Positions 10,801-53,391 of a DNA stretch of 64,000 nucleotides are shown one piece after another. Numbering within the stretch: position 1 is the first letter of the stretch; each line of letters opens with the position of its first letter. Under the pieces are notes generated by a model. That model was not told the origin of the DNA and searched no databases. It saw only the letters and a program-made list of their open reading frames with translations. The stretch lies in contig NC_088790.1 of the NCBI RefSeq assembly GCF_949628265.1, positions 22,138,545 to 22,202,544 on the forward strand. Direction: 5' to 3'. The DNA is from Cloeon dipterum (taxonomy: Eukaryota > Arthropoda > Insecta > Ephemeroptera > Baetidae). A program made the translations under genes and the position numbers.

Positions 10801-13800
10801 CATGTGTCGGGCGAGAAAAAAAAATCGGCCGAAATGATAAATAGACAGCACACGGTTCTCGCGGACAAATTGGCCGCACTCATTTTCCCTCTACTCTTTA
10901 TTTTTGGTGCCGTTTGCTCGCCGTCGGTTTGCTGCCGCGGGAGGCTGAATTTCGGAGAAAAATTGCCGCACAGCGTGTGGGGGAAGCGCCAGTGGTGCCA
11001 GCAGTGTCTGATGAAAACGAATCGGCGTCAGGAAGACACAACAAATCGGCTCCTCGGGAAACGTGAAAAATTAGCTCCAGCTCGTGTTTGTCAGTTGTGC
11101 CACAAAAGGTTATAGGGTTGGCGCGAAAGCATTTTTTTGTAGCCGGCAGAAGGGAAAATACACAAGAGGAAGAATCATGCGACTATAGAGCAAGGCTTTG
11201 TTTTCAATTTTCCTTTTTTTATTGCAACTTTGTTATTAACAAGAGAAATGACTAAAATAATTTACAATAATCAAGTAAGTCTTGTTTATAAGTCCCCTTG
11301 ACTCATTAATTCTCTAGTTTTCATTTGGTCCTTAATTCTACTCTCAAGCCTCTTTTGCACTTCTTGATCTCGGATTTGAAAAAGGAACAGAAGCGGCGCG
11401 TTACCATTGTTTGAGGGCGTAACGAGGTCCAAATGCTCAAACTGAAGCAAGTAGTCAATGATTCTGCTTGCACAGCAAATGACCGCCCACAGAATTGCAC
11501 TCGTCCCGCTATCATCCCTCACGTTAATGTCGGCTCCAAACTCTTTTACAAGTAACTTCACGATTTCGAGGTTTCCCTTTTGAACCGCAATGGTCAAGGC
11601 TGAGCTCGCCGCTACGGTTTGATCTTCGTGGCTCATCAGACTGAGAAGCAACCTGACCAATTCTTCTCTGTTTCTCTCTATCGCCACCCCGAGTGGGGAA
11701 CGAAAGTACTTGTTGCATTTACTAACCACTGCTCCCCGATCAAATAAGTCCATCACGAGGTTAACGTGCCCTCCATCTACAGCGCCACAAAGTGCTTCGT
11801 CAAGGCCGCGTTGCTGTTGGTCAGGTGGAAATTTCTCAAGGATGATGTCCAAATCCCTCCCGCCGATCTTGGCAGCCTGTTAGAGAAGAAAAAAGTCCGA
11901 TTAAGATATATTTAGCCAAAAAATTCTTAACATTTAAGACAATTTTTAATCCTAAAAAACAATGATCTTAATTATTTTTAAATATTTATAAAAAGTCAAC
12001 TTGCCACAAATGAAAGAGTGGTGCCATTGCTTGAGCAGGAAATGTTTGCGTTATTTTCCAAAAGAAATTTGATGACCTCTGAGTGATTCCCTTCAACTGC
12101 AAGCATCAATGGTGTTCTTTCAGTTGCGTCTTTAACATCGATTTCTACGCCTTCGATCCCGAGCAGAAATTTAACAGCTTTAAGCTGTCCCTTTTTAGCT
12201 GCGTAATGAAGTGGAGTCAATCGAGAATAGTTGTCTAGCAGGCTGGGATTCGCGTTGTTTGTAAAAAGAACGTTCATGAGTATTAAATCATCGTTCTCGG
12301 CAGCTATGTGCATAGCACCTCCGCCTGAAAATGGCACGTGATCGACATTCGCGCCTTTCTGGATCAAGTAGGTAATGCATGCCAGGTAAGGATTTGGCTC
12401 TATTGGTGTAAAAGCAGGAGTTATCCCTACTGGCCGATGGAAGAAAGGGGCTTCCCTGTTGATTTTATCTTTAGGGAAAAAAGGATGTCGCTCCACCTGG
12501 TTCTTATTTTTGTCCCAATATTCTTGGCATCTTTTAGCTAGAACCACGATCGGAGTTTTCCCTTCTACAATGTCAAAATCTGTTGAAAATCCTTTCTCCA
12601 AGAATACCTCTACAACTTTCTGCATTCTGTCTCCACGTGCTCCATGAGCAAGGCCAATCCAAAATGCGTTTCTTTTGACATTTTGTGAATAATCACGATC
12701 TAACAAATGAGCAAGACACTCTGGTTCTGAGTGCAAAGCAGCTCTTTCCAAAGCAGTCATCCGCCCGAGAAACGTTCGGTTCGGAAGGTGCATGGGTACG
12801 CTTTTTGCATGAATATCTGCTTTATGCTTCTCCAACAGCTTCAGCACTTTCAAACGCCCACTTGATGCAGCGTGAATGAAAGGAGTTTCGTTGATTTTAT
12901 CTTTTGGATTAATTTCAACATTTTGGTCCAGCAAATATTCGCAGCATTCTAGGCTATTGTGTATTGCCGCAGTGTGCAATGGAGCATGCCTAAGAAATTT
13001 GTCCTGTCGCTGCAGGTTTGCCCCCTTTTTATGAAGCAGAATTAAAACATCAAGCTGGTTAGTAGAGCAAGCTGCGTGTACTGCAGTTCTTCCATCCTCA
13101 TCAACCTCGACATCGACCTGTCCAGTTGCATCAATTAGTTCTTCCACTAGAACAACATGACCCTTTTGTGCCGCAAGATATATTGGTGGGTAACCAAATT
13201 TGTCCTTAAGCACGTCCAAGTTATCGCCCATCAAAAAACGGACTATGTCTCGGTGACCTTCTGTTGCTGCAAATTCCAATGCTCTTTTTCGTAGATGGAT
13301 TTTCTCGTTTTCGCTGTTGCTTGCTTCTATAAAAACTTTAACGCAATCCAGGTGGCCTATCTTGGCGGCAATGTCGAGTGGAATGTTCCGAGCATCATTT
13401 TCTCCGTCGGTCAACTCGGGAAGCGCGGCAATAATCCTTTTTGTTACGTTTGATAGGCCTTTTTTGGCTGTCAAATGCAAAATATTGCCTCCACCTTCAA
13501 TCTTACATTCAGGGGGTTTGAGAAGATCTAATTTTGCGCCTTTGTCCAACAAATGCAGTGCCAAATCTTCGCTTGAAAAGCACGCAGCATACAGCGGGTA
13601 GTAACTGTATGTCTTGTCTTGATAATCATATTGGAACGGAGTATTCACCAGCTTGGTAATGTCTTCGAAATTGGATTTAAAACTGGCCTCAAACAAAAGT
13701 TTGAACAGTCTGGAATGCCCTTCTTTGCAGATAAACGCCATGAGGTCAGTTTCTTGTGACTTCAGTGTGGGCGGATCGCAGGCATTGTGTAAATGTGTAA

Positions 13801-16800
13801 CCCTAACCTTCTCGTCTCTTGAATTCCCCTCAAAATAATTATCGATGAAAGCTCTCACTTGGTCAAACTGGTTCTTCAATAGAAACTCGCTCAGGTTTAT
13901 ACTTTCAATGTCCTCCAGGAAATCTTCGCGCTTTGGTATCCTCATGACGTTGTGACCGGCCTTTGAAAGAAATAGCAAGCTCACCAAGAACTCGGCGAAT
14001 GTTTGGTGAACGAATATAATCGACTTGAGCTTCTTTTTATCAAAAGTCACAACTGCTATTCCAAGTTCATTAATGCGATCCTTATTTGTTATCCGGAGAT
14101 CATCTGCAGAGGGCAAGTTATCTGGGAAGAAGTAGTTCATGGCCACTTTGGTCAAAAGCTCTAACTTTTCTTGTAAGACTTCTGCAAAATTTGGTGCGTT
14201 CTCGTCTGTGCCGCTGAACTTGAGCATAGCAGACCGCACCTTGTTGACCACGAAGTGATAGTACAGCGAGTGTAGGCCACCTTCCATGCTGCTGAGACGA
14301 TCAGCAGTTTCTGCCATCATTTTCAGATGAAGAGGGGTTGCTGCGAACTCTTTGTTGATCCTTTTCAGTAGATCTTCACATTCCTCCCGGTTTTTGTACA
14401 GGAGGGTTCTGAGGAGATGTATTTGCTCTTCCTTGTTCATCGGCACCAAATCAAAAACGTTGAGCTTATTAATGCTTTCTCTTATACTTTTTTCTCTGTA
14501 AACTCTAGTTGTGATCCACAACGGAATGTCGGCAGTGCTCATGTCACGCAGGTATTTTAATACCAAGTTCTCATAGGAAGGACAAATCTCGTCAAATCCA
14601 TCAACGAGGATGATTATTTTCTTTTGTTGAATTTTTTTTGTAATATTTTCATCATTTCCCTCAAGCACGTAGGTTAATAATTGACGATAGTCAGATTTTT
14701 CGTGATCTTCGTTGAGAAAAAATTTGCTTGCCTTGACGAGGTAAATACAGACTATGAGAAACTCTGGCAGCTTCTCACGCAGCTGCCTGGCCATCTCCTT
14801 TGTGGCGGCAGATTTCCCGAGTCCAGCACTTGAACTCAGAAGCCACGCTCGTATCCTCCAGTTATCCTCTTGACCTGAGCATTTTGCCGTTTCTACAATC
14901 TGCTCAGCAATTTCTTCAAAAGAAAAATGCTTTGCGTAGTTTTCCATTTGGAACGATGGTTTGATATACGCGTTCGAGCATGGTGGAAAATCCAGCAGTC
15001 GTGACAAAGTACTCGACACCTGGGGAAACACACGGTTCCCAACAGCGCAGCGGCGGATGATGTTCACGATAGCTTCCTGCAAACTCAGGCCTTTCTTTAA
15101 TTTCGGGTCTCTTAATCCACGTGCTAGAACTTTGACAAGATTTTCCTCCGTGTCATCACCGGGACTCCCCACTCCCAGGAAAACGAAAATCTCGCCGTGA
15201 TTATTTCCATGGACAATAAAATCTTCGGCTGACTGTAAATTATTGCTATTAATATAAATGATCTCTATTCCAATAAAAATATGTTGTATTACCTTTCCTG
15301 TGAAAAGCGTGTCTACATCATTTCCTTGGTCAATAAAAAAGAACAATTTTGGTTTCCCAGCCAGGTCTGTTGACTTGGTGCCAATGAATGAACGAGTGAT
15401 GTTGTTGACTAAAACCTTTTCCTTGTCTGACACTTTCAAATTTAATTCATTGTCCTTATCTTCTCTCAATTTTGCCAAAACGCAGACTGCTAAACTGCCA
15501 TCTTCAATTAAGCCACAGTCCGCAGCCATGGAAACTAATTATTTTTTGTTGAAAATATGCGAAAGAAATATATATTTTGCTCTCACCTTTCTTGACGACC
15601 TGTGCAAGCTGCACAATACTGTAAACCTCAGTTTCAAAGTCCAAATATTGAAAACTCTTTTGGAACTCCGCAGCCTGCACTAAATGTTGTTGGTCATGGA
15701 ATATCAACGCTCGACCTCTCCTGAAAAGTATCATTTTTTCTGACCGCCATGTGTAGAAATCCTTTCTGTCCACTGTGATTAATTGGGAGGAATCTGAAAC
15801 ACATTTTCCGTCTTTTTTCTCAACGACCGGACACCTGTAGAAATAGATTTTTCGATAGAATAATACAAACTATTATCCTTCGTTATTACCCATAAATGGT
15901 GAATTTCTTGTGTTTAAAATATTGAATTTGTGGTGTCTGAGCAAAGATGCTGTCCAATGTAGACTTGGCACAAATCCGTCGTTGCACTCTATTTAGAAAT
16001 ATTATCAGATCCGTGTCGTTGCTCATGGTGGTCAGCTCTTTGCAGAATTCAGTGACCAACCACGTACCCTTTTCATCACTATTGGACACATTGGCTAAAT
16101 AAAAATTTAATTTTTAAATAGACATTGTATGGCATCAATTGAACTCACCCTCTACAGTGGAATAAAAGATTACAAAATTTTCGCTGTTGGGTTTTGCAGT
16201 TATCCACATTGATTTTGAACCATCGACACAGTCATTTAAGATTTTTGTCGTAAGACGGAGTTCGTTATGTGGGCCCCGACACGACTGCAAGAGATACATA
16301 TATAAATGGCTTAACAATATCTTTTTATTTCAAATCTTACGCCAAAAACTAAAATTTTGAGGCAGTTGCTCAGCTTCGGCATGTTCTTCTCGTGGAGGCC
16401 ATTCCACACGTCAGAAGTAAAGTAGTGTTCATATTTCGACTCCTCAACACTCGAGTCTGGCGATAAGTGGTCGGTGTAAATCGTTCCATCGGTCGTGCCA
16501 TGGGATAATACAAACAGGACTAAAACGTCAGGTGCTTGTGCTGTATATCAAAAGTTAAAAAGCGATTCGATAAAAGAGAATAGCTATGCCTTTTTCGTCC
16601 GCTCCGAATATTTCATACAACTTGTTCTCCTGGCTGAGGACACCCAAAATCTCGTCTCTAGATTTCGAGGCCATCTCTCTAAACTCACAATTTCTCCTTG
16701 AGAACTCATCTCTGAGGTTTTTTACGTCTTCTTTGTCACTGATTCGGCTGTCGTCGCCGAAATCGCTAAAATCATTGTGCACCACTAGCGTCCACACCCT

Positions 16801-19800
16801 GCAATCCAATTTGTTAGTTACACACACAAAGTGTTTGTGTTAATGAAATCCCTGTGCATACCTTGCCGGACCAGCGGAGCCGTCAAACACCCCTAATCCG
16901 CACTTCATTTACTCAATTTCCCGGCCTAGTAAGGGACGCACTATTTTGTCTTAGACTAAAAGAATAGTCAGTTAGGCAACTTTTCGTGAGTAATATTCCA
17001 GAAATTTTTACCTTTGTCTTTATATCTGGATGCTAACAGTTGACGTCAAGAAAAATGGGAGTAAAAACTCATTTTAAAAAGCTATTTAGGGTGTTATTCA
17101 GTAAACAAACAACGGAGACAAGAACTCTCTGATCATGCGTTGAGGCTGTGGAGTCACCATCTGGGAGGAGCTTTCGCAAACGCGCAGAGCGCGAGCTTAA
17201 AAAACTGACACCAGCGACTCGATTGTGCGAACGGAGAAATGCAGCGTGTCGCAGCACTATTAGCAGGCGCGATCTCACTCCCATCGCATCATTTTGCTCA
17301 ATTTAAAAAAAGCTTTTAAATTAGCTTGCGATGATTACCTAAATATTTGTTGCCCTATGTTGGAGTATGTTAACATGTTTGAAATAAATATATTTAAATC
17401 AATTCTGAATATTTATGCTTCATTTTTATGTTTCAGTGAAAAGGCCCCTGCCGCCACCTCGTGGCTACTGTGCTCCGTACAATGGCAAAATTTGCAAAAA
17501 CTTCCTTAACGGTACCGGCATGGCTTGGTACAACATCAGCCACGACAATTCTGGCGGATGGCTCAATGAAGAAATCACTACTGGGCTCTGGGGCGAGATG
17601 ATTGATAATCTGAAAGAGCCATGTCGGAGTGCTGCAGAGGTTAACTTACTTGATTTAATATCATATTTATATATCATCACAGTTTATGATTTCTTTTCGA
17701 TAATTTAATAGGGATTTTTGTTCAAAATAAAAAAGCCAATAATAAGCTATTAATTTGTACTGATTTAAATTAAATCGTTAATATCTAAACTAAATAATAC
17801 TTCTTAAAGCTCTCTAAATGCTTCTTTACAAATTGCATATTGCTGATTTAGTTATAACATTACAAAATAAATTTCCCTCTTTTTGGATTCAATTTTTTCA
17901 TTGAAAATTATATCTAATCGGCTGATTGTGAGTGAAAAAATGCATCGTTTTACAGAAACTGCTGTGTACGTACGCGTTCCCGCAGTGCCAGATCCACGAG
18001 GGCTACCCAGTGGGGCTGCCCCTGTGTCGCGAGGACTGCGTGGCCGTCAAGGACCTCTTCTGCTACAACGACTGGGCGCTCATCGAGGACAACAAGCAGC
18101 GTGGCGTCTTTTTCAAGTCCAGGGGCCACTTTATCCTGCCTGAGTGCTCCTCCCTGCCGAGTTTTAAGGACTCAGAGAGATGCTCGCACGCGGGGCTGAC
18201 AGTGGTGCAGCAGGACCAAGTTACAAGTGAGTCACTGTGACTTGTTAATAATTAATTATGAGTGGTAAAAATACAGAAACGGAATAATTTTGTGATTTGA
18301 AAGCAGATTAGCTTTAAAAAATCATACTGGAGTAAAATTTTTAATAATTAAATTTTACTGCCTACAAAAATTTGATAAAATACTTACCATTAAATTTCAT
18401 CGTATTAAAATTTCATAGGATGATTGAGGGAGCTGATGTCAGTTCAAATTTAAAAAGAGCTTAATATTTGTACTATTTTTTTCGGTCTGTGACCTTTTTG
18501 CAACGCAGGCAATGCAGAAACGGCCCTTCCTTTTAGTATTTTTTGCCTTTACTTACTAAAAATCAATGCGTAGAAAAAGTTTATCAAATAATCTGCCTCA
18601 ATCCCTGGAAACCAAGTTGAGGCAAAAGGGTACAATGTTTGCTGAGACGGCGGTCGTAAATCCTTCTCTCACGTTTTTTCCAGCCGAGTGCGTGCGCGGA
18701 CGTGGCCGCTTTTATATGGGAACAATGAACGTGACCAAGGATGGCATCGCGTGCCAGCGGTGGGACTCGCAGGAGCCGCACTCGCACAACCGGCCGCCGG
18801 AGGTGTTTCCCGAGGTGCAGGACGCCGACAACTTCTGCCGCAACGCCGGTGGAGAGGAGCCCAGCCCCTGGTGCTACACCATGGACCCCACCATCCGCTG
18901 GCAGCACTGCGACATCCCTATCTGTGGTACGTTTCTCTTCTTCGTCATTGAAAACTTTTATTTTGATTGTTTTTTCTTAGAAGAGTAACCTAATTAATCA
19001 AAATTTTGGCTCATGTTGAGCCAAATCGATTAAATTAACACCATTTTTATCTGTCTTACTCATAAATAATTTACGAAAAATTTATATTTGGGGACTTTAT
19101 GGGCCGTAAAACTTTTAGAACACAATTGCAATGGTGTGTCATTATTGGTTATTGTGGCTATTTTAAAATAAAGATGTGCCAAGCCATATTGAATGAACAC
19201 CAAAATTAAGGTTACATAGGCCGTGGTCATTTTCTGACATTGCAGTTGATTTTTATTTGTAGCTTATTAAAAGCTCATATTATACTTTTTTATAGGCGAG
19301 GTAATTGAAGTTTTCATTTTGGGCACTCGTAAACTTGTGGAAGTTTCCACAGTGATGTGTCTGTTTTCCGAAAAATCCGAAATATTAAACCTTGAAACTG
19401 ATTATTATTATTATTGGAAAAATTGGGATTGCAAAACTGTCAAAAATGCATAAAACGCACACCGTTTAACTCAAACTGGCTTGATATGCTGCAATGAAGT
19501 GATTTTTGGATACCTACTTAAACCCTGAAAGCTAGAATTAGGACGAGCATGACTTTTTGTTCAGCGTTACATTAAAATGGAAAGTAATCCCGTTAATTGT
19601 GGAGAAACTATTTGCATTTAAAAACTGGATTAATCAGACAATTAAAAAGCCAGTAATTATAAAATATATCCTAATGTTTTTAAAAAATAATGCAAATCAG
19701 CCTCTGACATTTTTCTTCCGCTATAATTTTGAAATTATAATGAAATTGCAGATAACGCAACAGAAATAACCAAAGTGGAGTACGAGGACAAGCGAACGAT

Positions 19801-22052: not shown

Positions 22053-23431
22053 GTCGTGTGCAGTTAACCGTGGCCAATTACCTCAACAAGTCTCTTTTTC
22101 GTGCATTTATTTTTCAGATCGACTTCGTTTTTACTTCTTTAAAATTTTCGTGACTGAACGAGTGGGGTATTTTATTACATTTCATTTTCTATGATCTTAC
22201 GACTCTCAGAGGGAGTTCCGGTAAATGAAAGAAACAGCTGGCAATGCTAGTCAATAAGGTTGCCATGAGATATATATTATCCTTCGGATCCTTCGTTCGC
22301 GTTCAATTTTTAACTCTGCTCTCTGTGCTATATTTGTGTTAGGTTGTGCAACGCTAGTTGACAGTTAATTGGCAGCTCTGAACTGAATCTCGAAACATGA
22401 TAATTTTGGAATCTCGCTCCAAAGTGAACACTCATATATTCTTGTATCTCTGTGTTGATTGTGATTTCGCTCTATATATGTGTCAAATTCAAATCGCTGC
22501 ATTTATATTAACGATATTAAACACTTTAGTCAGACACGCAACTACTTACTGCCTTACCTTGCAAAGGGTGTGCCATATTTGCACACGATTCTCTTATTTT
22601 TACTTTGCAATTAATCTACCACGCGCAGTCTATTTAATTTTTACTCTTGTGTATTTTTTGTTACTCAAGTGAATGGGAACACGTTGTGCGTACTGAATGT
22701 GATTTGTAAATATAATCTCATGTGCATTTCTGTAAAATTACGTGTATGGAGTGTGTAAAAGTTAAAATCGCAAATTGTGTCGCTGCACACCTGATTATTA
22801 ATGTGCGCGCGAAGGCGAAAAAGTAACCATATCAAACAATTGTCAGTCGATTTTGATTCCGTGTCCGCGCAGCGTAAATAAAAAGTAGGCAATATATTTG
22901 CATTCTCTTACACGCATCGCCGTTAAAACAAAAAATGTGTAGATCGAATGACTGATTGTCTCTCATTACACAACACGCAGCATCGCACTTTTGTACAACT
23001 CGCAGAAACCCATCTCACAACCTGAAATTAATCGAAACGGAAAGTAATAATGGATTAATAGGTCATTTATTGTAAATTGGAGAGTAAACTGAATAAAATC
23101 TCTGTTGCTCTTTTTGAATAATTTTTCGATTTTAATTAAACTTAAAAAAACTCTGCTCCTAATCAGAATCTGTTGAAAATCAAACAATTTTTTTGGTGCT
23201 GCACAGGTCTGCTCCCTTTTTTTCAGGGAAGTTGGTTTAGTGGTCAAGGTGCGTGAACTCCATTCATACCTCAGCCTGGACGTCATCAACATCTCTTTAA
23301 CAATTTCACGTCTTTGTTGTTCTACGCCTCAGTTAAAAGCGTAAATTGGTGTCAAATTGAAATTAATTGCATTTTTAATAGTATTTACACCAGGCTGGGA
23401 TAAATAACTTTAATTATAATTCAGGCAAGCC
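22053..23431. other. Nrk 3' untranslated region and spacer
   Basis: AT-rich sequence between the Nrk stop and the ZAD pseudogene. A poly(A) signal is at 22877-22882. From about 23330 on, the sequence matches the region just upstream of the intact ZAD gene (about 46120-46220), so the old ZAD promoter copy lies here. No other gene is seen. Confidence 0.6.
22877..22882 (+). terminator. Candidate Nrk poly(A) signal
   Basis: AATAAA on the plus strand about 825 bases after the Nrk stop. It is the first clear canonical signal I noticed downstream of the gene; an earlier weaker signal could be used. Confidence 0.4.
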
Positions 23432-24632: not shown

Positions 24633-25050
24633 GTGAGCTTCCATTTTTTTCTTGACTCTTTGAGTTTGTCTGGTTATTTCCACAGCCGGTTGAAATATGT
24701 CAGGTTTGCTCCTGATGGTCAAGTCATCACAAATTTAACTAATTTTACACTTGAACTTTTACCCTGACCGGTGCAGCTTGCTCGCCGTCTGTTTGTTCCC
24801 ACAGCAGGAGGCTTAATTTCGAGGATAATTTGCCCTACAGCGTGTGGGGAGAGCGCCAGTGGTGCCAGTAGTTTCTAATGAAAGCGAAAAAGCGTCAGGA
24901 AGACACAACAAATCGGCTCCTGGGAAACGTGAAATATTAGTTCCAGCTCGCTTTTGTCAGTTGTGGCACTTAAGGTTATAGGGTTGGCGTGAAAGCATTT
25001 TTTGTAGCCTGCAGAAGGAAAAATACACAAGACTAAGGCTTTCATTTTTT

Positions 25051-25056
25051 TTTATT
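25051..25056 (-). terminator. Poly(A) signal of NLR copy 2
   Basis: AATAAA on the minus strand about 60 bases after the stop codon at 25117, at the place matching copies 1 and 3. Confidence 0.65.
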
Positions 25057-25116
25057 ATAATTTAAGTTATAAACAAGAGAAAGGACTTAGTATTACAAAA
25101 ATCAAGTAAGTCTTGT

Positions 25117-28100
25117 TTATAAGTACCCTTGACCCATTACTTCCCTACTTTTCATTTGATCCTTAATTCTACTCTCTAGACTCTTTTGCACTTCTTGATC
25201 TTGGATAAGGAAAAGAAATTGAATTGGCGCGCTACCGTCGTTTGACGGCGTAACGAGGTCCAAATGCTCAAACTGTAGCAAGTAGTCAATGATTCTGCTT
25301 TCGCAGTTAATGAACGCCATCAGAATTGCACTAGTCCCACTATCGTCCCTCACATTAATGTCGGCTCCAAACTCTTTTACAAGTAAATTCACGATTTCGA
25401 GGTTTCCCTTTTTAATCGCAATGATCAAGGCTGAGCTCGCCGCTACAGTTTGATCTTCGTGGCTCATCAGACTGAGAAGCAACCTGACCAATTCTTCTCT
25501 GTTTCTCTCTATCGCCACCCCGAGTGGGGAACGAAAGTTCACGTTGCATTTACTGACCACTGCTCCCCGTTCAAATAAGTCCATCACGAGGTCAACGTTT
25601 CCTTCATCTACAGCGTCACAAAGTTCTTCATCAAGGTCGCGTTGCTGTTGGTCAGGCGGATAACTCTCAAGGATGGTGTCCAAATCTCTCTCGCCACCCC
25701 TGGCAGACTGTTAGAGCAGTATATTTAATTGAAAGAACAAATGAAAATTATTTAGACAAAATGTTCATAACATTTTAAACGTTTTGTTAATTCTAAAAAA
25801 ATGATATTTTTTAATGTTTATAAAAAGTCAACTTGCCACATCTGAAGTGGTGCCATTGCGTGAGCAGGAAATGTTTGCGTTGTTTTCCAAAAGAAATTTG
25901 ACGACCTCTGTGTGATCCCCTTCTTCTGCAAGCATCAATGGTGTTCTTTTCCTTGAGTCTTTAACATCGATATCTACGCCTTCGATCCCAAGCAGAAATT
26001 TGACAGCGTTAAGCTTTCCTTTTTTAGCTGCGTAATGAAGTGGAGTCATTTTATTTATCTCGTCCCGCAGGTTGGGATTCGCATTGTTTGTCAAAAGAAC
26101 GTTCATGAGTATTACATCATCGTTCTTGGCAGCTATGTGCATAGCACCTCCGCCTGAAAATTGCATATGGTCGACATCCGCGCCTTTCTCTATCAAGTAG
26201 GTAATGCATGGCAGGTAAGGATTCGGCTTTATTAGTGTAAAAGCCGGAGTTATCCCTACTGGCCGATGGAAGAAAGGGGCTTCCCTGTTGTTTTCATATT
26301 CAGAGAAGGAAGGATGTAGCTGGTTCTTATTTTTCTCCCAAAACTCTTGGCATCTTTTAGCTAGAACCACAATCGGATATCTCGATCCCATATTCATAAC
26401 TTTCATTGAAAGTCCTTTCTCCAAGAAAACCTCTACAACTTTCTGCATTCTTTCTCCATGATCTCCATGAGCGAGGCCGATCCAAAATGCGTGTCTTTTG
26501 ACATCTATTGAATAATCAAGATCTAACAAGTGAGCCAGACACTTGAGAGTCTCAGGAAATGAATGCCTAGCAGCTCTGGTCAAAGCAGTCATTCGACCAA
26601 GACGCTGCCCATCCGGAAGTTGCATGGGTTCACTTTTTGCATGAATATCTGCTCCGTACCTCTCCAATAGCTTCAGCACTTCCAAACACCCCATTGTTGC
26701 AGCTCTAATGTATGGGGTTTCTTTGAATTTATCTTTTGGATTAACTTCAAAATTATGGTCCAGCAAATACTTGCAGCAGTCTTGGCTGTTGCTTGATGCT
26801 GCATCGTGCAACGGAGCACTCTTGAGATATGTGTCCTCTTGCTGCAGGTTTGCCCCCTTTTTATGAAGCAGAATTAAAACATCAAGCTGGTTAGTAGAGC
26901 AAGCTGCGTGTACTGCAGTTTTTCCGTCATTATCTTCCTGGACATCGACCTCTCCAGTGGCATCAATTAGTTCTTCCACTAGAACAACATGACCCTTTTT
27001 TGCCGCATGATATATTGGTGGGTAGCCTTTGCTGTCCTTCAGCACATCCAAGTTATCGCCCATCAAAAAACGGACCATGTCTCGGCGGTGACCTTCTGGT
27101 GCTGCAAATTTCAATGCTCTTTTTCGTAGATGGATTTTCTTGTTTTCGCTGTTGCTTGCTTCTATAAAAACTTTAACGCAGTCCAGGTGACCTCTCTTGG
27201 CGGCAATCTCGAGTGGAATGTTCCTAAAATCATTTTCTCCGTCGGACAACTCGGGAAGCGCGGCAATAATTCTTTTTGTTATTTTTGATAGACCTTTTTT
27301 GGCTGTCAAATGCAAAATATTGCCTCCACCTTCAATCTTACATTCAGGTGGTTTTAGGAGATCTAATTTTGCGCCTTTGTCCAACAAGTGCAGTGCCAAA
27401 TCTTCGCTTGAAAAGCACGCAGCGTACAGCGGGTAGTAGCTGTATGTATTGTTTTGATAATGATATTGGAACGGAGTATTCACCAGCTTGGTAATGTCTT
27501 CGAAATTGGATTTAAAACTGGCCTCAAACAAAAGTTGGAACAGTCTGGAATGCCCTTCTTTGCAGATAAACGCCATGAGGTCAGTTTCTTTTGACTTCAG
27601 TGTGCGTGGATCGCAGGCATTGTGTAAATGTGAAACCCTCACCTTCTCGTCTCTTGAGTTTCCCTCAAAATAATTATCGATGAAAGATCGCACTTGGTAA
27701 AACTGGTTCTTCAATAGAAACTCGCTCAGGTTTATACTTTCAATGTCCTCCAGGAAATCTTCGCGCTTTGGTATCCTCATGACGTTGTGACCGGCCTTTG
27801 AAAGAAAAAGCAAGCTCACCAAGAACTCTGCGAATGTTTGGTGAACGAATATAATCGACTTGAGCTCCTTTTTATCAAAAGACACAACTGCTATTCCAAG
27901 TTCATTAATGCGATCCTTATTTGTTATCCGGAGATCATCTGCAGAGGGCAGGTTATCTGGGAAGAAGTAGTTCATGGCCACTTTGGTCAAAAGCTCTAAC
28001 TTTTCTTGTAAGACTTCTGCAAAATTTGGTGCGTTCTCGTCTGTGCCGCTGAACTTGAGCATAGCAGACCGCACCTTGTTGACCACGAAGTGATAGTACA

Positions 28101-30809
28101 GCGAGTGTAGGCCACCTTCCATGCTACTGAGACGATCAGCAGTTTCTGCCATCATTTTCAGATGAAGAGGAGTTGCTGCGAACTCTTTGTTGATTCTTTT
28201 CAGTAGATCTTCACATTCCTCCCGGTTTTTGTACAGGAGGGTTCTGAGAAGATGTATTTGCTCTTCCTTGTTCATCGGCACCAAATCAAAAACGTTGAGC
28301 TTATTAATGCTTTCTCTTATACTTTTTTCTCTGTAAACTCTAGTTGTGATCCACAACGGAATGTCCGCAGTATTAATGTCACGCAGGTATTTTAATACCA
28401 AATTCTCGTAGGACGGACAAATCTCGTCAAATCCATCAACGAGAACGATTATTTTCTTTTGTTGAATTTTCTCAATAATATTTACATCATTGTCCTTAAG
28501 CACGTAAGTCAAAAATTGACGATACTCAGATTTTTCGCTATCTTCATTGAGTAAAAATTGGCTTGCCTTGACAAGGTAAATGCAGACTACGAGAAACTCT
28601 GGCAGCTTCTCACGCAGCTGCCTGGCCATCTCCTTCGTGGCGGCAGATTTCCCGAGTCCAGCACTTGAACTCAGAAGCCACACTCGTTCCCTCAACTTAT
28701 TAATTGGATCTGAGCATTTTGCCGTTTCTATAATCTGCTCAACAATTTCTTCAAAAGAAAATGGCTTCGCGTAGTTTTCCATTTTGAACGATGGTTTGAT
28801 ATACGCGTTCGAGCATGGTGGAAAATCCAGCAGTCGTGACAAAGTACTCGACACCTGGGGAAACACACGGTTCCCAACAGCGCAGCGGCGGATGATGTTC
28901 ACGATAGCTTCCTGCAAACTCAGGCCTTTCTTTAATTTCGGGTCTCTTAATCCACGTGCTAGAACTTTGACAAGATTTTCCTCCGTGTCATCACCGGGAC
29001 TCCCCACTCGCCCAGGAAAACGAAAATCTCGCCGTGATTATTTCCATGGACAATAAAATCTTCGGCTGACTGTAAATTATTGCTATTAATATAAATGATT
29101 CCAATAAAAATATGTTGTATTACCTTTCCTATGAAAAGCGTGTCCACATCATTGCCTTGGTCAATAAAAAAGAACAATTTTGGTTTTCCAGCTAGGTCTG
29201 TTGACTTGGTGCCAATGAATGAACAAGTTATGTTGTTGACTAAAACCTTTTCCTTGTCTGACACTTTCAAATATAATTCATGGTCCTTATCTTCTCTCAA
29301 TTTGGCCAAAACGCAGACTGCTAAACTGCCATCTTCAATTAAGCCACAATCCGCAGCCATGGAAACTAATTTTTATTTGTTCAAAATAAACGAAAGAAAT
29401 ATATATTTTGCTCTCACCTTTCTTGACGACCTGTGCAAGCTGCACAATACTGTACACCTCAGTTTCAAAGTCCAAATATTGAAAGCTCTTTTGGAACTCC
29501 GTAGCCTGTACTGAATGTAGTTGATCATGGAATATCAACGCTCGGCCCCTCCTGAAAAGTATCCTTTTTTCCGACCGCCATGTGTAGTAGTCCTTTCTGT
29601 CCGCTGTAACTAATTGGGAGGAATCTGAAACACATTTTCCGTCTTTTTTCTCAACAACTGGACACCTATAGAAATAGATTTTTCAATAGAAAAATACTAC
29701 TAGCTATTATTTTTTATTTTTACCCATAAATAGTGAATTTCTTGTGTTTGAAATATTGAATTTGTGGTGTCTGAGCATAGATGCCGTCCTGTGTAGACCT
29801 GTCACAGATTCGTCGTTGCACTCTATTTAGAAATATTATCAGATCCGTATCGTTCCTCATGGAAGTCAGCTCATTGCCGAATTCAGTGACCAACCACGTT
29901 CCCTTTTCATCAGTATTGGCATAGTTGGCTAATATAAAATTGAAAATTAAAATAAACACCTTAGGACACCAATAAAACTCACTTTCTACAGTGGAATAAA
30001 ATATGACAAAATTTTCGCTGTTTGGTTTTGCAGTTATCCAAATTGGTTTTGGACCATCGACACAGTCATCTGTCGGGATTTCCGGTTGGGCCTCCAACTG
30101 ATGCAATCGTGCCCCAACCCTCAAATCATGCAATGTTTTTGTTGTAAGTCGGATTTCATCATTTTGACCCCGACACGGCTGCAAGAAATGCTATGACATA
30201 TTTTTTTCTTTTAATCCAAATCTTACTCCAAAAACTAATATTTTGAGGCAGTTGCTCAGCTTCGGCATGTTCTTCTCGTGGAGGCCATTCCACACGTCAG
30301 AAGTAAAGTAGTGTTCATATTTCGACTCCTCAACACTCGAGTCTGGCGATAAGTGGTCGGTGTAAATCGTTCCATCGCTCGTGCCATGGGATAATACAAA
30401 CAGGACGAAAGCTTCAGGTGCTTGTGCTGTATATCAAAAGTTAAAAAGCGATTCGATAAAATAGAATTTAGCTATGCCTTTTTCGTCCGCTCCGAATATT
30501 TCGTACAACTTGTTCTCCTGGCTGAGGACACCCAATATCTCGTCTCTAGATTGCGAGGCCATCTCTCTAAACTCACAATTTCTCCTTGAGAACTCTTCTC
30601 TGAGGATTTTAACATCTTCTTTGTTGCTGGTTCGGCTGTCGTCGCCGAAATCGCTAAAATCATTGTGCACCACCAGCGTCCACACCCTGCAATCCAATTT
30701 GTTAGTTACACACACAAAGTGTTAGTTTGTGTTAATGAAATCCCTGTGCATACCTTGCCGGACCAGCGGAGCCGTCAAACACCCCTAATGCGCACTTTAT
30801 TTTCTGCAT
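25117..30809 (-). CDS. Caspase / pseudo-caspase / NACHT / ankyrin-repeat protein, copy 2 (one 2-base frameshift)
   Basis: Paralogue of the gene at 11286 with the same nine exons: 30754-30809, 30478-30686, 30227-30426, 29983-30178, 29724-29928, 29418-29665, 29124-29365, 25837-29069, 25117-25707. The start codon is upstream of that in copy 1, giving MQKIKC. Caspase His (LSHG) and Cys (PCRG) are kept. Exon 4 is 60 bases longer than in copies 1 and 3, adding about 20 residues to the linker between large and small caspase subunits. NACHT motifs ([25 protein letters not shown]) and ankyrin repeats are kept. Two extra bases near 29009-29011 (CTCGCCC against CTCCC) shift the frame inside the second caspase-like domain and lead to a stop about 15 codons on. 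With this lesion only the caspase half is encoded. It is either a young pseudogene, a shortened caspase-only gene, or an assembly error. Confidence 0.82.
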
Positions 30810-30932
30810 TTCCCGGCCTATTACGGGATGCAATATTTTGTCTTAGACTACAAGAATAGTCAGTTAGGTAACTTTTTGTGAGTAATATCCCTGAAATTTT
30901 TACCTTTTGCTGTCTATCCGAATGCTTACATT

Positions 30933-30940
30933 TGACGTCA
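30933..30940. promoter_or_regulatory. CRE/ATF-like palindrome upstream of NLR copy 2
   Basis: TGACGTCA about 125 bases upstream of the start codon at 30809, matching the site at 17041 in copy 1. Functional use is inferred only from its retention. Confidence 0.35.
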
Positions 30941-31704
30941 AGGAAAACGGAAGTAAAAACTCTTTAAAAAGCTATTTTTGTGTTATTCAGTAAACCAACA
31001 ACCGAGACAAAAACTCTCCGATGGTGACTTTAGGCCGTTTGTGTCACCATTTGGGAGGAGATTTCGCTAGAGAGAGCTTATATCTGATGAATGAGATAAG
31101 CTCTGGAAATATCAACGCTCGGGCCTCCCCTGAAAAGTATGGAAAAATTACAGTTTCAGCTGGTTTACACATCTCGCCAGTTTTTATGAGAAAAAAGATT
31201 TGTGGCAATAACTGTATTTCGTAGCGAAAGGTGTTATTTTTCCATACCATTATTTCCGACCGCAATCAGTAGAAATCCGAGAAATCCTTTCTGTCCACTG
31301 TAGCTCTAAAGTTGAACGGGGTCTGAAACACACTTTCCGTCTTTTTTCTCGACGACTGCCACGAATATAGAAATAGATTTTTCGATCGAACACTATAAAT
31401 AAACTAGTATTATCTGATAAGCTTTCTATATTTTGCAAACGCGCCGAGCGCGAGAATAAAAAACTGACTCAACAAAGCGACCCGATTGTGCGAGTGGAGG
31501 AACGCAGCGTGTCTCAGCAGTAACAGGCACGAATCACTCTTACTGCATCTGGAACTGTGCTCAATTTAAAAAAAAGCTGTTTAATAAACTTTATTATGAT
31601 TATCTTGATGAATATTGGCCCTGTGCCCCAGTAAGTGAACGTGTTTGAATAAAAATATATTGTATTATTAGGAATATTGTGTGTGTTTCATTTTTGAGTG
31701 TCAG

Positions 31705-36975: not shown

Positions 36976-37406
36976 GGTGAGCTTCCATTTTTTTCTTGAC
37001 TTTGAGTTTGCCTGGTTTTTTGCACAGCCGGTTGAAAAAGTGTCAGGTTTGCTCCTGATCAAGTCATAACAATAAATTTAACTAATTTTACACTTGAAAG
37101 TTTACCATGACCGGTGCATTTTGCTCGCCGTCAGATTGTTGGAACGGCCGGAGGCTTCATTTCGAGGATAATTTGCCGCACAGCGTGTGGGGAGATCGCC
37201 AGTGGTGCCAGTAGTTTCTAATGAAAGCGAAAAAGCGTCAGGAAGACGCAACAAATCGGCTCCTGAGAAACGTGAAATATTTTATATCCATCTCGCTTTT
37301 GTTAGTTGTGCCACTTATGGCTTTAGGTTTGGCGTGAAAGCAGTTTTATGAAGCCTGCAGAAGGGAAAATGCACAAGACTAGAGCTTTTTGCTTACAAAT
37401 TATTTT

Positions 37407-37412
37407 TTTATT
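37407..37412 (-). terminator. Poly(A) signal of NLR copy 3
   Basis: AATAAA on the minus strand about 70 bases after the stop at 37482, at the place matching copies 1 and 2. Confidence 0.65.
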
Positions 37413-37481
37413 GTAACTTACAATTAGTTATAAACAAGAGATACGACTTATTAACTAGAACAAAAATCATGTGGGTCTTGT

Positions 37482-40400
37482 TTATAAATCCCCTGCTTGA
37501 CCCATTAATTCTCTAGTTTTCATTTGATCCTTAATTCTCCTCTCTAGCCTCTTTTGCACTTGTTGATCTTGGATATGGAAAAGAAAATGAATTGGCGCGC
37601 TACCGTTGTTTGACGGCGTGACGAGGTCCAAATGCTCAAACTCTAGCAAGTAGTCAATGATTCTGCTTTCGCAGTAAATGAACGCCAACAGAATCGCACT
37701 AGTCCCGCTATCGTCCCTCACGTTAATGTCGGCTCCAAAATCTTTTACAAGTAAATTCACGATTTCGAGGTTTCCCTTTCGAACTGCAATAATCAAGGCT
37801 GAGCTTGCCGCTACGGTTTGATCCTCGTGGCTCATCAGACTGAGAAGCAACCTGACCAATTTTTTGCTGTTTCTCTCTATCGCCACCCCGAGTGGGGAAC
37901 GAAAGTTCACGTTGCATTTACTGACCACTGCTCCCCGTTCAAATAAGTCAATCACCAGGTCAACGTTTCCTTCGTCTACAGCGTTACAAAGTGCTTCGTC
38001 AAGGCCACGTTGCCGTTGGTCAGGCGGATAACGCTTAAGGATGATGTCCAAATCTCTCTCGCCACTCCTGGCAGCCTGTTAGAGCAGTTAAATTATTTTA
38101 AAAGTCAATTTACAGTTGTTAAGCCTAAATATTATGAAGAATTGCATTTTCCCGATTCTTAACATTTTTAAGACAAATTGTAAATGTTATACTTTCTTAT
38201 TTTTAAATATTTAAAAAAACATCGTCACTTGCCATTAATGAAAGAATGAAGCCATTGTAGGAGCATGAGCAGGAAATGTTTAAGTACTTTACCATTTCTT
38301 TTGAAAGAAATTTGACGACCGCTGAATGATTTCCTTCAACTGCGAGCATCAATGGTGTTCTTTCAGTTGCGTCTTTAACATCGATTTCTACGCCTTCGAT
38401 CCCAAGCAGAAATTTAACAGCTTTAAGATTTCCCTTTTCAGCTGCGTAATGAAGTGGAGTCATTTGATAAATGTTGTCCAGCACGCTGGGATTCGCATTG
38501 TTTTTTTAAAAGAACGTTCATGAGTATTAAATCATCGTTCTCGGCAGCTATGTGCATAGCACCTCCACCTGAAAATGGCACGTGATCGACATTCGCGCCT
38601 TTCTGGATCAAATAGGTGATGCATGCCAGGTAAGGATTTGGCTCTATTGGTGTGCTAGCAGGATTCATTTCTGCTAGTCGATGAAAGAAAGGAGCTTCCA
38701 TGTTGATTTTATCTTCAGGGAAGAAAGGATGTCGCTCCAGTTGGTTCTTATTTTTGTACCAATACTCTTTGCATCTCTTGGCTAGAACCACGATCGGAGT
38801 TTCCCCTTCCATAATGTCAAATTCTGTTGAAAATCCTTTCTCCAAGAAAACCTCTAACACTTTCTGCAAACGTTCTCCATCATAACATTCATATGTGAGG
38901 CCCAACCAAAATGCGTGTCTTCTAACATCTTCAGAATAATCACGATCTAACAAGTGAGCTAGACACTCAGATTGCGAGTGGAAAGCAGCTCTATCCAAAG
39001 CAGTCATAGGACCGAAAAAGTGCCGGTTTGGAAACCTCATGGGTACACTTTTTGCATAAATATCAGCTCCGTACCTCTCCAATAGCTTCAGCACTTTCAA
39101 ATGCCCACTTGATGCAGCATGAATGTAAGGAGTTTCGTCGATTTTATCTTTAGGATCAACTTCAACATTTTGGTCCAGCAAATATTCGCAGCATTCTTGG
39201 CTGTTTCGTATGGTTGCGAAGTGCAACGGAGCACGCAGAACTTTGTCCTGTTGCTGCAGGTTAGCCCCCTTTTTATGAAGCAAAATTAAAACGTCAAGAT
39301 GGTTATTAGAGCAAGCTGCGTGTACTGCAGTTCTTCCATCCTCATCAGCCTGGACATCTACCTGTCCAGTGGCGTCAATTAGTTCTTCCACTAGAGCAAC
39401 ATGACCCTCTCCTGCCGCAAGATATATTGGTGGGTAGCCTTTTCTGTCCTTCAGCACGTCTAAGTTATCGCCCATCAAAAAACGGACCATGTCTCGGTGA
39501 CCTTCTGTTGCTGCAAATTCCAATGCTCTTTTTCGTAAATGGATTTTCTCGTTTTCGCTGTTGCACGCTTCTATGAAAACTTTAACGCAATCCAAGTGGC
39601 CTCTCTTGGCGGCAATGTCGAGTGGAATGTTCCGAGCATCATTTTCTCCGTCGGACAACTCGGGAAGCGCGGCAATAATTCTTTTTGTTATTTTTGATAG
39701 ACCTTTTTTGGCTGTCAAATGCAAAATATTGCCTCCACCTTCAATCATACATTCAGGTGGTTTGAGGAGATCTAATTTTGCGCCTTTGTCCAGCAAATGC
39801 AGTGCCAAATTTTCGCTAGAAAAGCACGCTGCGTATAGCGGGTAGTAGCTGTATGTCTTGTTTTCATAATCATATTGGAACGGAGTATTCACCAGCTTGG
39901 TAATGTCTTCGAAATTGGATTTAAAACTGGCCTCAAATAAAAGTTGGAACAGTCTGGAATGCCCTTCTTTGCAGATAAACGCCATGAGGTCAGTTTTTTG
40001 TGACTTCAGTGTAGGTGGATCGCAGGCATTGTGTAAATGTGTAACCCTCACCTTCTCGTCTCTTGAGCTTCCCACAAAATAATTATCGATGAAAGCTCTC
40101 ACTTGGTCAAACTGGTTCTTCAATAGAAACTCGCTCAGGTTTATACTTTCAATGTCCTCCAGGAAATCTTCGCGCTTTGGTATCCTCATGACGTTGTGAC
40201 CGGCCTTTGAAAGAAATAGCAAGCTCACCAAGAACTCGGCGAATGTTTGGTGAACGAATATAATCGACTTGAGCTTCTTTTTATCAAAAGTCACTATTGC
40301 TATTCCAAGTTCATTAATGCGATCCTTATTTGTTATCCGGAGATCATCTGCAGAGGGCAAGTTATCTGGGAAGAAGTAGTTCATGGCCACTTTGGTCAGA

Positions 40401-43162
40401 AGTTCTAACTTTTCTTGTAAAACCTCTGCAAAATTTGGTGCGTTCTCGTCTGTGCCGCTGAACTTAAGCATAGCAGACCTCACTTTGTTGACCACGAAGT
40501 GATAGTACAGCGAGTGTAGGCCACCTTCCATGCTGCTGAGACGGTCAGCAGATTCTGCCATCATTTTCAGATGAAGAGGGGTTGCTGCGAACTCTTTGTT
40601 GATTCTTGTCAGTAGATCTTCACATTCCTCCCGGTTTTTGTACAGGAGGGTTCTGAGGAGATGTATTTGCTCTTCCTTGTTCATCGGCACCAAATCAAAA
40701 ACGTTGAGCTTATGGACGTTATCTCTTATACTTTTTTCTCTGTAAACTCTAGTTGTGATCCACAACGGAATTTTCGCAGTGTTCATGTCACGCAGGTATT
40801 TTAATACCAAGTCCTCGTAGGAAGGACAAATCTCGTCAAATCCATCAACGAGAACAATTATTTTCTTTTGTTGAATTTGCTCAATAATATTTACATCATT
40901 ATCCTTAAGCACGTAAGTCAATAATCGACGATACTCAGATTTTTCTTGATCTTCGTTGAGCAAAAATTGGCTTGCCTTGACAAGGTAAATGCAGACTATG
41001 AGAAACTCTGGCAGCTTCCCACGCAGCTGCCTGGCCATCTCCTTCGTGGCGGCAGATTTCCCGAGTCCAGCACTTGAACTCAGAAGCCACGCTCGTATCC
41101 TCCAGTTGTCCTTTGGACCTGAACATTTTGCGGTTTCTATAATCTGCTCACCAATTTCTTCAAAAGAAAAAGGATTTGCGTAGTCTTTCATTTTGAACGA
41201 TGGTTTGATATACGCGTTCGAGCATGGTGGAAAATCCAGCAGTCGTGACAAAGTGCTCGACACCTGGGGCAACACACGGTTCCCAACAGCGCAGCGGCGG
41301 ATGATGTTCACGATAGCTTCCTGCAAACTCAGGCCTTTCTTCAATTTCGGGTCTCTTAATCCATGTGCTAGAACTTTGACAAGATTTTCCTCCGTGTCAT
41401 CACCGGGACTCCCCACTCCCATGAAAACGAAAATCTCGCTATGGTTGTTCCCATGAACAACAAAATCTTCAGCAGACTGTAAATTCCGATTAATATTAAT
41501 GAACTTTAATCCAATAAAGCAATTTCACCTTTCCTACGAATAGCGTGTCCATATCATTTCCTTGGTCAATAAAAAAGAACAATTTTGGTTTCCCAGCCAG
41601 ATCTTTTGACTCGGTGCCAATGAATGAACGAGTGATGTTGTTGACTAAAACCTTTTCCTTGTCTGACACTTTCAAGATTAATTCCTGGTCCTTATCTTCT
41701 CTCAATTTGGCCACAACGCAAATGGCTAAACTGCCATCTTCAATTAAGCCACAATCCGCAGCCATGGAAACTAATTTTTATTTGTTCAAAATAAACGAAA
41801 GAAATATATATTTTGCTCTCACCTTTCTTGACAACCTGTGCAAGCTGCACAATACTGTAAATCTCAGTTTCAAAGTCCAAATATTGAAAGCTCATTTGGA
41901 ACTCCGTAGCCTGTATTAAATGTTGTTGGTCATGGAATATCAACGCTCGGCCCCTCCTGAAAAGTATCCTTTTTTCCGAGCGCCAGGTGTAGAAATCCTT
42001 TTTTTCCACAGTTACTAGTTGGGAGGGGTCTGTGATACACTCTCCGTCATTTTTCTCAACGACTGGACACCTATAGAATTAGATTTTTCAAACTATTACA
42101 ATGCAAACCAATATCGTTTGTTATTACCCATAAATGGTGAATTTCTTGTGTTTAAAATATTGAATTTGAGGTGTCTGAGCAAAGCTGCCGTCCAATGTAG
42201 ACCTGCCACAAATCCGTCGTTGCACTCTATTTAGAAATATTATCAAATCCGTGTCGTTGCTCATGTTTATTAGCTCCCTGCAGAATTCAGTGACCAGCCA
42301 CGTACCCTTTTCATCAGTGTTGGCCACATTGGCTTAATAAAAATTAATCAATACTAAATTAATTAATTAAAAATTCCAGGATATTGTTTTACTCACCTTC
42401 TACAGTGGAATAAAAGATAACAAAATTTTCGCTGTTGGGTTTTGCGGTTATCCACATTGATTTTGAACCAACGACGCAGGTAGTTAAGGTTTGTGTCATA
42501 AGACGGAGTTCGCTATTTGGGCCCCGACACGACTGCAAGAGATGAGATGTCATAAAAATCAATTTTTTAATCCAAATCTTACGCCGAAAACTAATATTTT
42601 GAGGCAGTTGCTCAGCTTCGGCATGTTCTTCTCGTGCAGGCCACTCCACACGTCAGAAGTTAAGTAGTGTTCATATTTCGACTTCTTAACATTGGAGTCA
42701 GTCGATAAGTGGTCAGTGAAAATCGTTCCATCGCTCGCGCCATGGGATAATACAAACAGGACGAAAGCCTCCGGTGCTTGCGCTGTATATCAAAAGTTAA
42801 AAAGCGATTCGATAAAAGAGATTTTAGCTATGCCTTTTTCGTCCGCTCCGAATATTTCGTACAACTTGTTCTCCTGGCTGAGGACACCCAATATCTCGTC
42901 TCTCGATTTCGAGGCCATCTCTCTAAACTCACAATTTCTCCTTGAGAACTCTTCTCTGAGGATTTTAACATCTTCTTTGTTGCTGGTTCGGCTGTCGTCG
43001 CCGAAATCGCTAAAATCATTGTGCACCACCAGCGTCCACACCCTGCAATCCAATTTGTTATGTTACACACACAAAGTGTTTGTTTTAATGAAATCCCTCT
43101 GCATACCTTGCCGGACTAGTGGAACCGTCAAACACCCCTAATCCGCACTTTATTTTCTCCAT
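37482..43162 (-). CDS. Caspase / pseudo-caspase / NACHT / ankyrin-repeat protein, copy 3 (one 1-base frameshift)
   Basis: Paralogue with the same nine exons: 43107-43162, 42834-43042, 42583-42782, 42397-42532, 42128-42332, 41823-42070, 41529-41770, 38233-41476, 37482-38075. It starts MEKIKC. The caspase keeps His in LSHG and Cys in SCRG; the second caspase-like domain, NACHT motifs and most ankyrin repeats are intact. The intron 41477-41528 is only 52 bases and contains stops, which proves that this short intron must be removed. A run of seven T at 38501-38507 is one base longer than the matching run in copy 1 and shifts the frame late in the ankyrin region; the correct frame resumes as a separate open frame down to 38233. 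The result would be loss of the last few ankyrin repeats. A homopolymer length error in the assembly is a real alternative. Confidence 0.84.
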
Positions 43163-43286
43163 TTCCCGGCCTAGTAAGGGACGCAATATTTTGTCTTAGA
43201 CTAAAACATAGTCAGTTAGATAACTTTTTGTGAGCAATATATTACTGAAATTTTTACCTTTTTATTTCTATCTGAACGCTTTCAGT

Positions 43287-43293
43287 TGAGTCA
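43287..43293. promoter_or_regulatory. AP-1-like site upstream of NLR copy 3
   Basis: TGAGTCA about 125 bases upstream of the start at 43162, at the place where copies 1 and 2 have TGACGTCA. Loss of one base turns one site type into the other. Confidence 0.3.
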
Positions 43294-43843
43294 AGAAACG
43301 GAAGTAAAATCTCTTTTAAAAAGCTATTTCATAAATGTTATTCACAATTAGTAAACAAACAACCGAGATAAGAAGTCTGTGATCATGAGCTGAGGCCGTT
43401 GAGTCACACCGCGAAATCACCTGGGAGGAGATTTCTCTAGAGAGCTTATCTGATTATGAGATAAGCTCTGAAATATCAACACACGACCTCTCCTGAAAAG
43501 TATGGAAAAAAATCAGTTTCCGCCGAGTTACACATTAGCTCACAAGATCTTACGAGAGAAAGTATTGGTGGCAAGAAATTTAATTCGCGGTGAAATGTAA
43601 ATGTGTACTTTTTCCTTATAATATTCCCTTACTGTCCTCTGTAATTATAAGGCTGTAACACACTTCTCTTTTTTCTCAACGACCGGACGCATAAAGAAGT
43701 AAAATTTATTTATATCGAAATCTATAAACTATAAGGTCTTATCTGATTAGCTCTTGATTCCGCCAGCGCTATGAGCGAGAGATTAAAAATCTGATACCAG
43801 AGCGACTCGGTTGTGCGCGTGAGGAAAAATACAGTGTGTCGCA

Positions 43844-50584: not shown

Positions 50585-53391
<2,807 letters not shown>

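What the first reader, a model, noticed from the sequence alone, without database searches (positions are those of the whole stretch)
11286..16908. One-polypeptide caspase + NACHT + ankyrin NLR-like protein in an insect
Seen: a caspase domain with His99 and Cys154, a NACHT module with P-loop and Walker B, and about 17 ankyrin repeats in one spliced frame of 1701 residues. Known: in animal NLR systems the sensor (NACHT plus repeats) normally recruits a separate caspase through death-fold adaptors; peptidase-C14 to NACHT fusions are known from fungi and bacteria, and NLR-type genes are scarce or absent in well-studied insects. Inferred: the protein may act as a self-contained death or immune switch in which ligand-driven NACHT oligomerisation brings caspase domains together, with no adaptor.
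Basis: partly seen in the sequence, partly recalled or inferred. Interest (0 to 1): 0.95.

Follow-up and report, generated by a model that had tools for sequence, protein, structure and literature searches.

The report
Mayfly NLRs with built-in caspase pair
A mayfly carries about ninety to a hundred genes that join a protein-cutting caspase, a second dead caspase, an immune-receptor switch and usually a sensor arm in one protein, which looks like an immune alarm and its cutter built in one piece, in an insect.

Summary
The nine-exon, 1700-residue frame is real, and a second Cloeon dipterum protein matches it end to end (90.5% identity). The window lies in the C. dipterum (mayfly) chromosome assembly. 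(1) Residues about 300-520 are a second caspase domain, dead in all 27 units aligned, yet under purifying selection at least as strong as the active one (dN/dS 0.17-0.25); the first domain keeps His and Cys in 27 of 27. Structure predictions of relatives give both caspase folds and an NLR-type NACHT module. (3) It is a family: 91 of 101 NACHT matches have active-caspase exons just upstream, and 23 of the 24 NACHT loci read have the order active caspase, dead caspase, NACHT. Full relatives turned up only in Cloeon and Neocloeon, in word-limited searches. Most likely these are adaptor-free, one-piece immune receptors in which NACHT assembly licenses an attached caspase, with the dead caspase as built-in partner; that function is inferred. 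No paper found describes them. New variant of a known kind (NLR), high interest.

The parts
16862..16908 (-). Exon 1, residues 1-15; start codon supported by the same start in P0001
   Evidence: P0001 begins MKRGLGVFDG
16590..16798 (-). Exon 2, active caspase domain N-terminal part, with the conserved Arg34 (S1-pocket position); GC donor
16341..16540 (-). Exon 3, active caspase, catalytic His99 in LSHG
16149..16284 (-). Exon 4, active caspase, catalytic Cys154 in GSCRG
15890..16094 (-). Exon 5, active caspase small-subunit part (to residue 265)
15587..15834 (-). Exon 6, linker and start of the second (dead) caspase domain
15293..15534 (-). Exon 7, dead caspase, large-subunit part; His and Cys positions lost
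12008..15232 (-). Exon 8, one frame of 1075 codons: dead-caspase small-subunit part, NACHT (P-loop, Walker B), winged-helix region, most ankyrin repeats
   Evidence: fold by relatives
11286..11876 (-). Exon 9, last ankyrin repeats and stop; exon 8-9 junction is the least certain
25047..30989 (-). Tandem copy B: same domain and exon order; frame of exon 8 broken relative to copy A; about 90% identical to A
37403..43329 (-). Tandem copy C: same domain and exon order; frame broken in the ankyrin part and exon 8 donor AT; about 89% identical to A

Best explanation
This is one member of a family of some 90-100 NLR-like receptor genes in the mayfly Cloeon dipterum in which the effector is built into the sensor. 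From the N terminus: a caspase with an intact His-Cys dyad, a pseudo-caspase that has lost both, a NACHT plus winged-helix switch, and ankyrin repeats. Proposed working, all inferred beyond the anatomy: the faster-evolving ankyrin arm senses a microbial or danger signal; NACHT exchanges nucleotide and oligomerises as in NLRC4 or NLRP3; crowding brings the caspase into its active dimeric form. The pseudo-caspase next to it serves as the built-in dimer partner, as FLIP(L) does for caspase-8, holding the caspase off at rest or completing its active site on assembly. Cut substrates then start a local defence or cell-death response without CARD, DED, Death or PYRIN adaptors. Shown: gene structure, domain order, retained dyad, dead partner under purifying selection, family size, predicted folds of relatives. 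Inferred: ligand, oligomerisation, cis pairing, protease activity, immune output.
Against: No transcript, activity, ligand or infection data. The second S1-pocket arginine place is Ser203 here (Arg in 23 of 27 units), and the Gln of QACxG is Gly in 26 and Lys in 1 of 27, so cleavage after Asp is doubtful for this copy. No conserved Asp stands out by eye in the inter-subunit linker. P0002 has a Cys two places beyond the lost one in its second caspase (GGCR), though no His. The dead caspase is not significantly more constrained than the active one (lower in 72-93% of bootstraps). The dimer geometry of the two caspases could not be measured. The profiles of the two caspase domains do not match each other. 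Foldseek matches to NLRs are local, with query-normalised TM 0.15-0.30. 10 of 101 NACHT matches showed no caspase exon. P-loop is altered in P0005, P0006 and P0023. Two of three window copies have broken frames.
Confidence: 0.6

Rival explanations
1. The active caspases pair with each other between neighbouring receptors in the NACHT ring, as caspase-1 or caspase-9 do, and the dead domain is only a spacer or substrate-docking hub.
For: Proximity-induced dimerisation between chains is the usual mode in inflammasomes and apoptosomes (established knowledge, recalled). The dead domain lies between caspase and NACHT, where a spacer would lie.
Against: The dead domain has kept a full predicted caspase fold in a relative and is under purifying selection at least as strong as the active domain, more than a spacer needs.
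Confidence: 0.25
2. The first caspase is a protease with altered specificity or little activity, used for non-lethal signalling, self-processing or allorecognition, not for death.
For: GSCRG/GPCRG in place of QACxG, Ser203 at the second S1 arginine place in this copy, no clear conserved Asp in the linker.
Against: His and Cys are retained in 27 of 27 units and 23 of 23 loci, and the first S1 arginine place in 26 of 27.
Confidence: 0.3
3. Annotation artefact: separate caspase and NACHT-ankyrin genes read together.
For: No RNA evidence was examined; two junctions are weak.
Against: Dead-caspase tail and NACHT share one open frame in 23 of 23 caspase-bearing loci, with ankyrins too in the window copies; introns of 49-63 nt join the caspase exons; independent predictions in another C. 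dipterum record and in Neocloeon, several named as isoforms, give the same order.
Confidence: 0.03
4. Contamination, or capture from a symbiont or a mobile element.
For: Patchy distribution: whole relatives found only in two baetid mayflies.
Against: Chromosome-scale contigs, intron-bearing genes, neighbours of ordinary animal type (by eye), and best PDB matches that are animal caspases.
Confidence: 0.02

Closest known systems
Animal NLRs (NLRC4, NLRP3, NOD2)
   Same: NACHT with P-loop and Walker B followed by helical and winged-helix parts; predicted structures of relatives rank these first; repeats at the C terminus; clustered family.
   Different: Ankyrin repeats, not LRRs; a caspase and a pseudo-caspase in place of CARD, PYRIN or Death domain.
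Caspase-8 / FLIP(L) pair
   Same: An active caspase beside a catalytically dead caspase (FLIP(L): PMC7586951, passages).
   Different: Here both sit in one chain with the NACHT sensor, and no DED is found.
Bacterial metacaspase-NACHT-WD40 proteins
   Same: Caspase-type protease fused to NACHT and repeats (PMC3501461, passages).
   Different: Bacterial metacaspase, WD40 repeats; no second dead caspase in the passages seen. The mayfly domains match animal caspases.
Fungal NLRs with protease N-domain (S8 or CHAT)
   Same: Sensor and protease in one NLR chain (PMC12881547, passages).
   Different: Serine protease or separase-like CHAT, controlling fungal gasdermins.
Amphioxus LRR-caspase and TNFR-caspase hybrids
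   Same: Direct sensor-caspase fusions that bypass adaptors, in an animal (PMC2575513, passages).
   Different: No NACHT-caspase fusion in the passages seen; those keep QACxG.
Shrimp LvNLRC
   Same: Arthropod NLR (PMC12370184, start of abstract in listing).
   Different: Assigned to NLRC; no integral caspase is mentioned in what I saw.

Membership tests
Animal NLR | NACHT with P-loop and Walker B | tested here: met
   (P-loop 23 of 23, Walker B 22 of 23 loci)
Animal NLR | NLR-type NACHT plus winged-helix fold | tested here: met
   Foldseek NLRC4/NOD2/NLRP3 best for two family models; local matches, low whole-model TM. This gene's own protein was not folded
Animal NLR | C-terminal LRR (prototypical NLR) | tested here: not met
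   Ankyrin repeats; no LRR family among those shown; so NLR-like, not a prototypical NLR
Animal NLR | N-terminal death-fold domain | tested here: not met
   None among the 25 of 26 Pfam families shown at E 0.01 for 28 members, nor for this protein at E 1
Animal NLR | Ligand-driven oligomerisation and immune output | not testable with these tools
   needs experiment
Caspase (active, residues 1-265) | Caspase fold | tested here: met
Caspase (active, residues 1-265) | His-Cys dyad | tested here: met
   27 of 27 units, 23 of 23 loci
Caspase (active, residues 1-265) | QACxG signature | tested here: not met
   GSCRG or GPCRG; Gln place Gly 26, Lys 1 of 27. Hence called a caspase-fold protease; Asp specificity not claimed
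Caspase (active, residues 1-265) | S1-pocket arginines | tested here: inconclusive
   First place kept in 26 of 27; second in 23 of 27, Ser in this copy; which columns these are is recalled from caspase-1 numbering
Pseudo-caspase (residues about 300-520) | Caspase fold | tested here: met
Pseudo-caspase (residues about 300-520) | Catalytic residues absent | tested here: met
   0 of 27 units, 0 of 23 loci; P0002 has a Cys two places further on
FLIP(L) | Tandem DED | tested here: not met
   none among the families shown; works-like only
Bacterial metacaspase-NACHT | Metacaspase-type protease | tested here: inconclusive
   Best PDB matches shown are animal caspases (60 of 141 and 60 of 171 rows seen); no direct comparison with metacaspases made
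Fungal CHAT-NLR | CHAT domain | tested here: inconclusive
   No CHAT family among the 25 of 26 Pfam families shown; no direct comparison made

The most novel reading that the evidence does not exclude
Baetid mayflies have rebuilt the inflammasome as one molecule: a clustered repertoire of some 90-100 receptors, each carrying its own caspase and its own pseudo-caspase partner in cis, so that sensing, assembly and proteolysis happen in a single chain with no adaptor and no separate caspase. This would be a large NLR system in an insect and a covalent caspase/pseudo-caspase pair.
Probability: 0.42. Interest if true: 0.95.

Novelty: new variant of a known kind. Interest (0 to 1): 0.83.

Why it matters
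NACHT is reported absent from Drosophila and C. elegans (PMC2575513, passage), and insect immunity is usually explained without NLRs (recalled). A mayfly with some 90-100 such genes, in clusters, with a faster-evolving sensor arm and a conserved effector, would be an independent build of the NLR idea. The joined caspase and pseudo-caspase make the question of how a dead caspase tunes a live one testable in one recombinant chain, and a system without adaptors would show what adaptors are for.

Tried and rejected
Rejected: gene-fusion artefact and contamination (see rivals). Direct homology between the two caspase domains by profile comparison: nothing found (E 0.26); each matches known caspases on its own, so a recent internal duplication is not supported. 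Profile search for relatives outside mayflies: besides mayfly proteins only ankyrin or NACHT background, plus a shrimp protein (P0046) with caspase-like repeats and no NACHT; the searches only reach proteins sharing exact five-residue words, so absence elsewhere is not shown. VIA rows for the second model show only its first caspase (50 rows); its second caspase and NACHT were not tested by that aligner. Literature: ten searches of an open-licence library gave no report of NACHT or caspase-NACHT genes in mayflies among the rows listed; the C. dipterum genome paper (PMC7250882, term counts and passages only) has 0 mentions of caspase, NACHT or ankyrin in its main text. Subscription papers and preprints were not searched. 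The 2026 sponge NLR paper (PMC12909245, passages) names CASc in a figure legend; whether a caspase is fused to NACHT there I could not tell. Of the 10 NACHT matches without a caspase hit, one (L039) was read 5.5 kb upstream and has none; nine were not read. One search failed part-way and was redone.
Full report
What is there. Introns are 49-63 nt except the last, 131 nt. Pfam finds Peptidase_C14 (E 4.5e-22), ankyrins (E 8.4e-80) and NACHT (25.3 bits for the spliced protein, cut-off 26.7; 30.6 bits for the exon in the genome scan). The weakest junction is exon 8-9: donor TTT|GTGGCA, AT in copy C, and apparently a different junction in protein P0001; it only affects the last ankyrins.

Where it is. 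G000 contig lengths 43195403, 37456129 and 36396660 equal those listed for the Cloeon dipterum proteins LOC135948392, LOC135937349 and LOC135942105. I take the genome to be that C. dipterum chromosome assembly (Ephemeroptera, Baetidae). The best relative, P0001, comes from another C. dipterum record (a 185,839-base contig) and is 90.5% identical over 1700 alignment columns with 23 gaps.

The family. The genome has 101 NACHT matches, 46 on C4 and 34 on C2, with clusters of up to 18. Searches with two family caspase domains, with some Pfam caspase places and the window copies added, put active-caspase exons within 8 kb upstream on the same strand for 85 and then 91 of 101; the lists were cut, so this is a lower bound. 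As control, 83 first-exon places lie upstream on the same strand for 79 of 101 NACHT, upstream on the other strand for 2, downstream for 7 and 0. Of 21 loci fetched, 20 have caspase 1, caspase 2 and NACHT in order; so do the three window copies. All 23 keep LSHG, CRG and the P-loop, 22 match the Walker B pattern; none keeps the His or Cys of the second domain. The one exception, L039, is a different NACHT gene. The fetched loci end about 800 nt past the NACHT match, so their ankyrins were not read; Pfam finds Ank_2 in 27 of 28 family proteins.

Selection. Among window copies A, B and C the dead caspase has dN/dS 0.17-0.25, the active caspase 0.30-0.35, NACHT-winged helix 0.31-0.38, ankyrins 0.38-0.62. 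By bootstrap the dead caspase is below ankyrins in 94.5-100% of samples, below the active caspase in 72-93%, below NACHT in 70-97%, and its upper limits are 0.35-0.43. A dead domain under such constraint is doing something. B and C each carry a frame break, which may have relaxed them; A alone is open throughout.

Who else has it. Three protein searches of about 5.8 billion sequences returned the caspase-NACHT order only from Cloeon dipterum and Neocloeon triangulifer, 9 of 26 hits are Cloeon, 16 Neocloeon and one an unrelated lipase-NACHT-ankyrin protein. Sensitivity is limited to shared words, so other mayflies and hexapods remain untested.

How it may work. See best explanation. Shown: order, dyad, dead partner, constraint, expansion, and no death-fold domain for 28 members at E 0.01 among the 25 of 26 families shown. 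Inferred: sensing by ankyrins, NACHT assembly, pairing of caspase and pseudo-caspase, immune output. FLIP(L) shows that a dead caspase can license a live one (PMC7586951, passages). Against an ordinary Asp-specific caspase: Gly at the Gln place, and in this copy Ser at the second S1 arginine place.

Known or new. Fusions of caspase-type domains with NACHT exist in bacteria (PMC3501461), fungal NLRs carry S8 or CHAT proteases (PMC12881547), amphioxus has LRR-caspase and TNFR-caspase (PMC2575513); all seen as passages only. I found no report of these mayfly genes in ten searches. Relatives stand in databases as uncharacterized or hypothetical proteins. I rate it a new variant of a known kind.

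Noticed in passing
L039 (C1:9154845-9161621): Best Pfam NACHT match of the genome (VLIEGLPGSGKTSL) has no family caspase exons in 5.5 kb upstream and looks by eye like a vertebrate-type NLR; an insect NACHT gene of another kind.
   Followed up: partly
P0046, Palaemon carinicauda: A 796-residue shrimp protein with three caspase-like repeats and no NACHT; by eye the first keeps SHG and FCRE, the later two have lost His (and the third the Cys): another arthropod chain of live-looking and dead caspases.
   Followed up: no
L009-L010 (C5:27.147-27.157 Mb): Cluster of conventional-looking caspases in Cloeon; one has QACRG, its neighbour QASNG with the Cys lost.
   Followed up: no
window 25047-30989 and 37403-43329: Copies B and C of the gene each carry a broken frame in exon 8; copy B also has a 60-nt in-frame insertion in the caspase linker exon.
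   Followed up: partly
window 17900-20232 (+): Kringle-bearing Ror/Nrk-like receptor kinase pieces next to copy A (by eye).
   Followed up: no
window 47243-49917 (+), 51257-53181 (-): C2H2 zinc-finger gene and an SMU1-like WD40 gene (by eye); similar open frames on the minus strand at 23414-23995 and 46174-47040 suggest that a neighbouring stretch was duplicated with the receptor.
   Followed up: no
P0026 (JGI metagenome): Lipase-like (by eye) NACHT-ankyrin protein of 1757 residues from a metagenome; another effector built onto NACHT-ankyrin.
   Followed up: no
P0007 (Cloeon): Carries two caspase-pseudocaspase-NACHT units in one predicted protein, the first incomplete; it may be two neighbouring genes joined by the predictor.
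   Followed up: no
   Followed up: no
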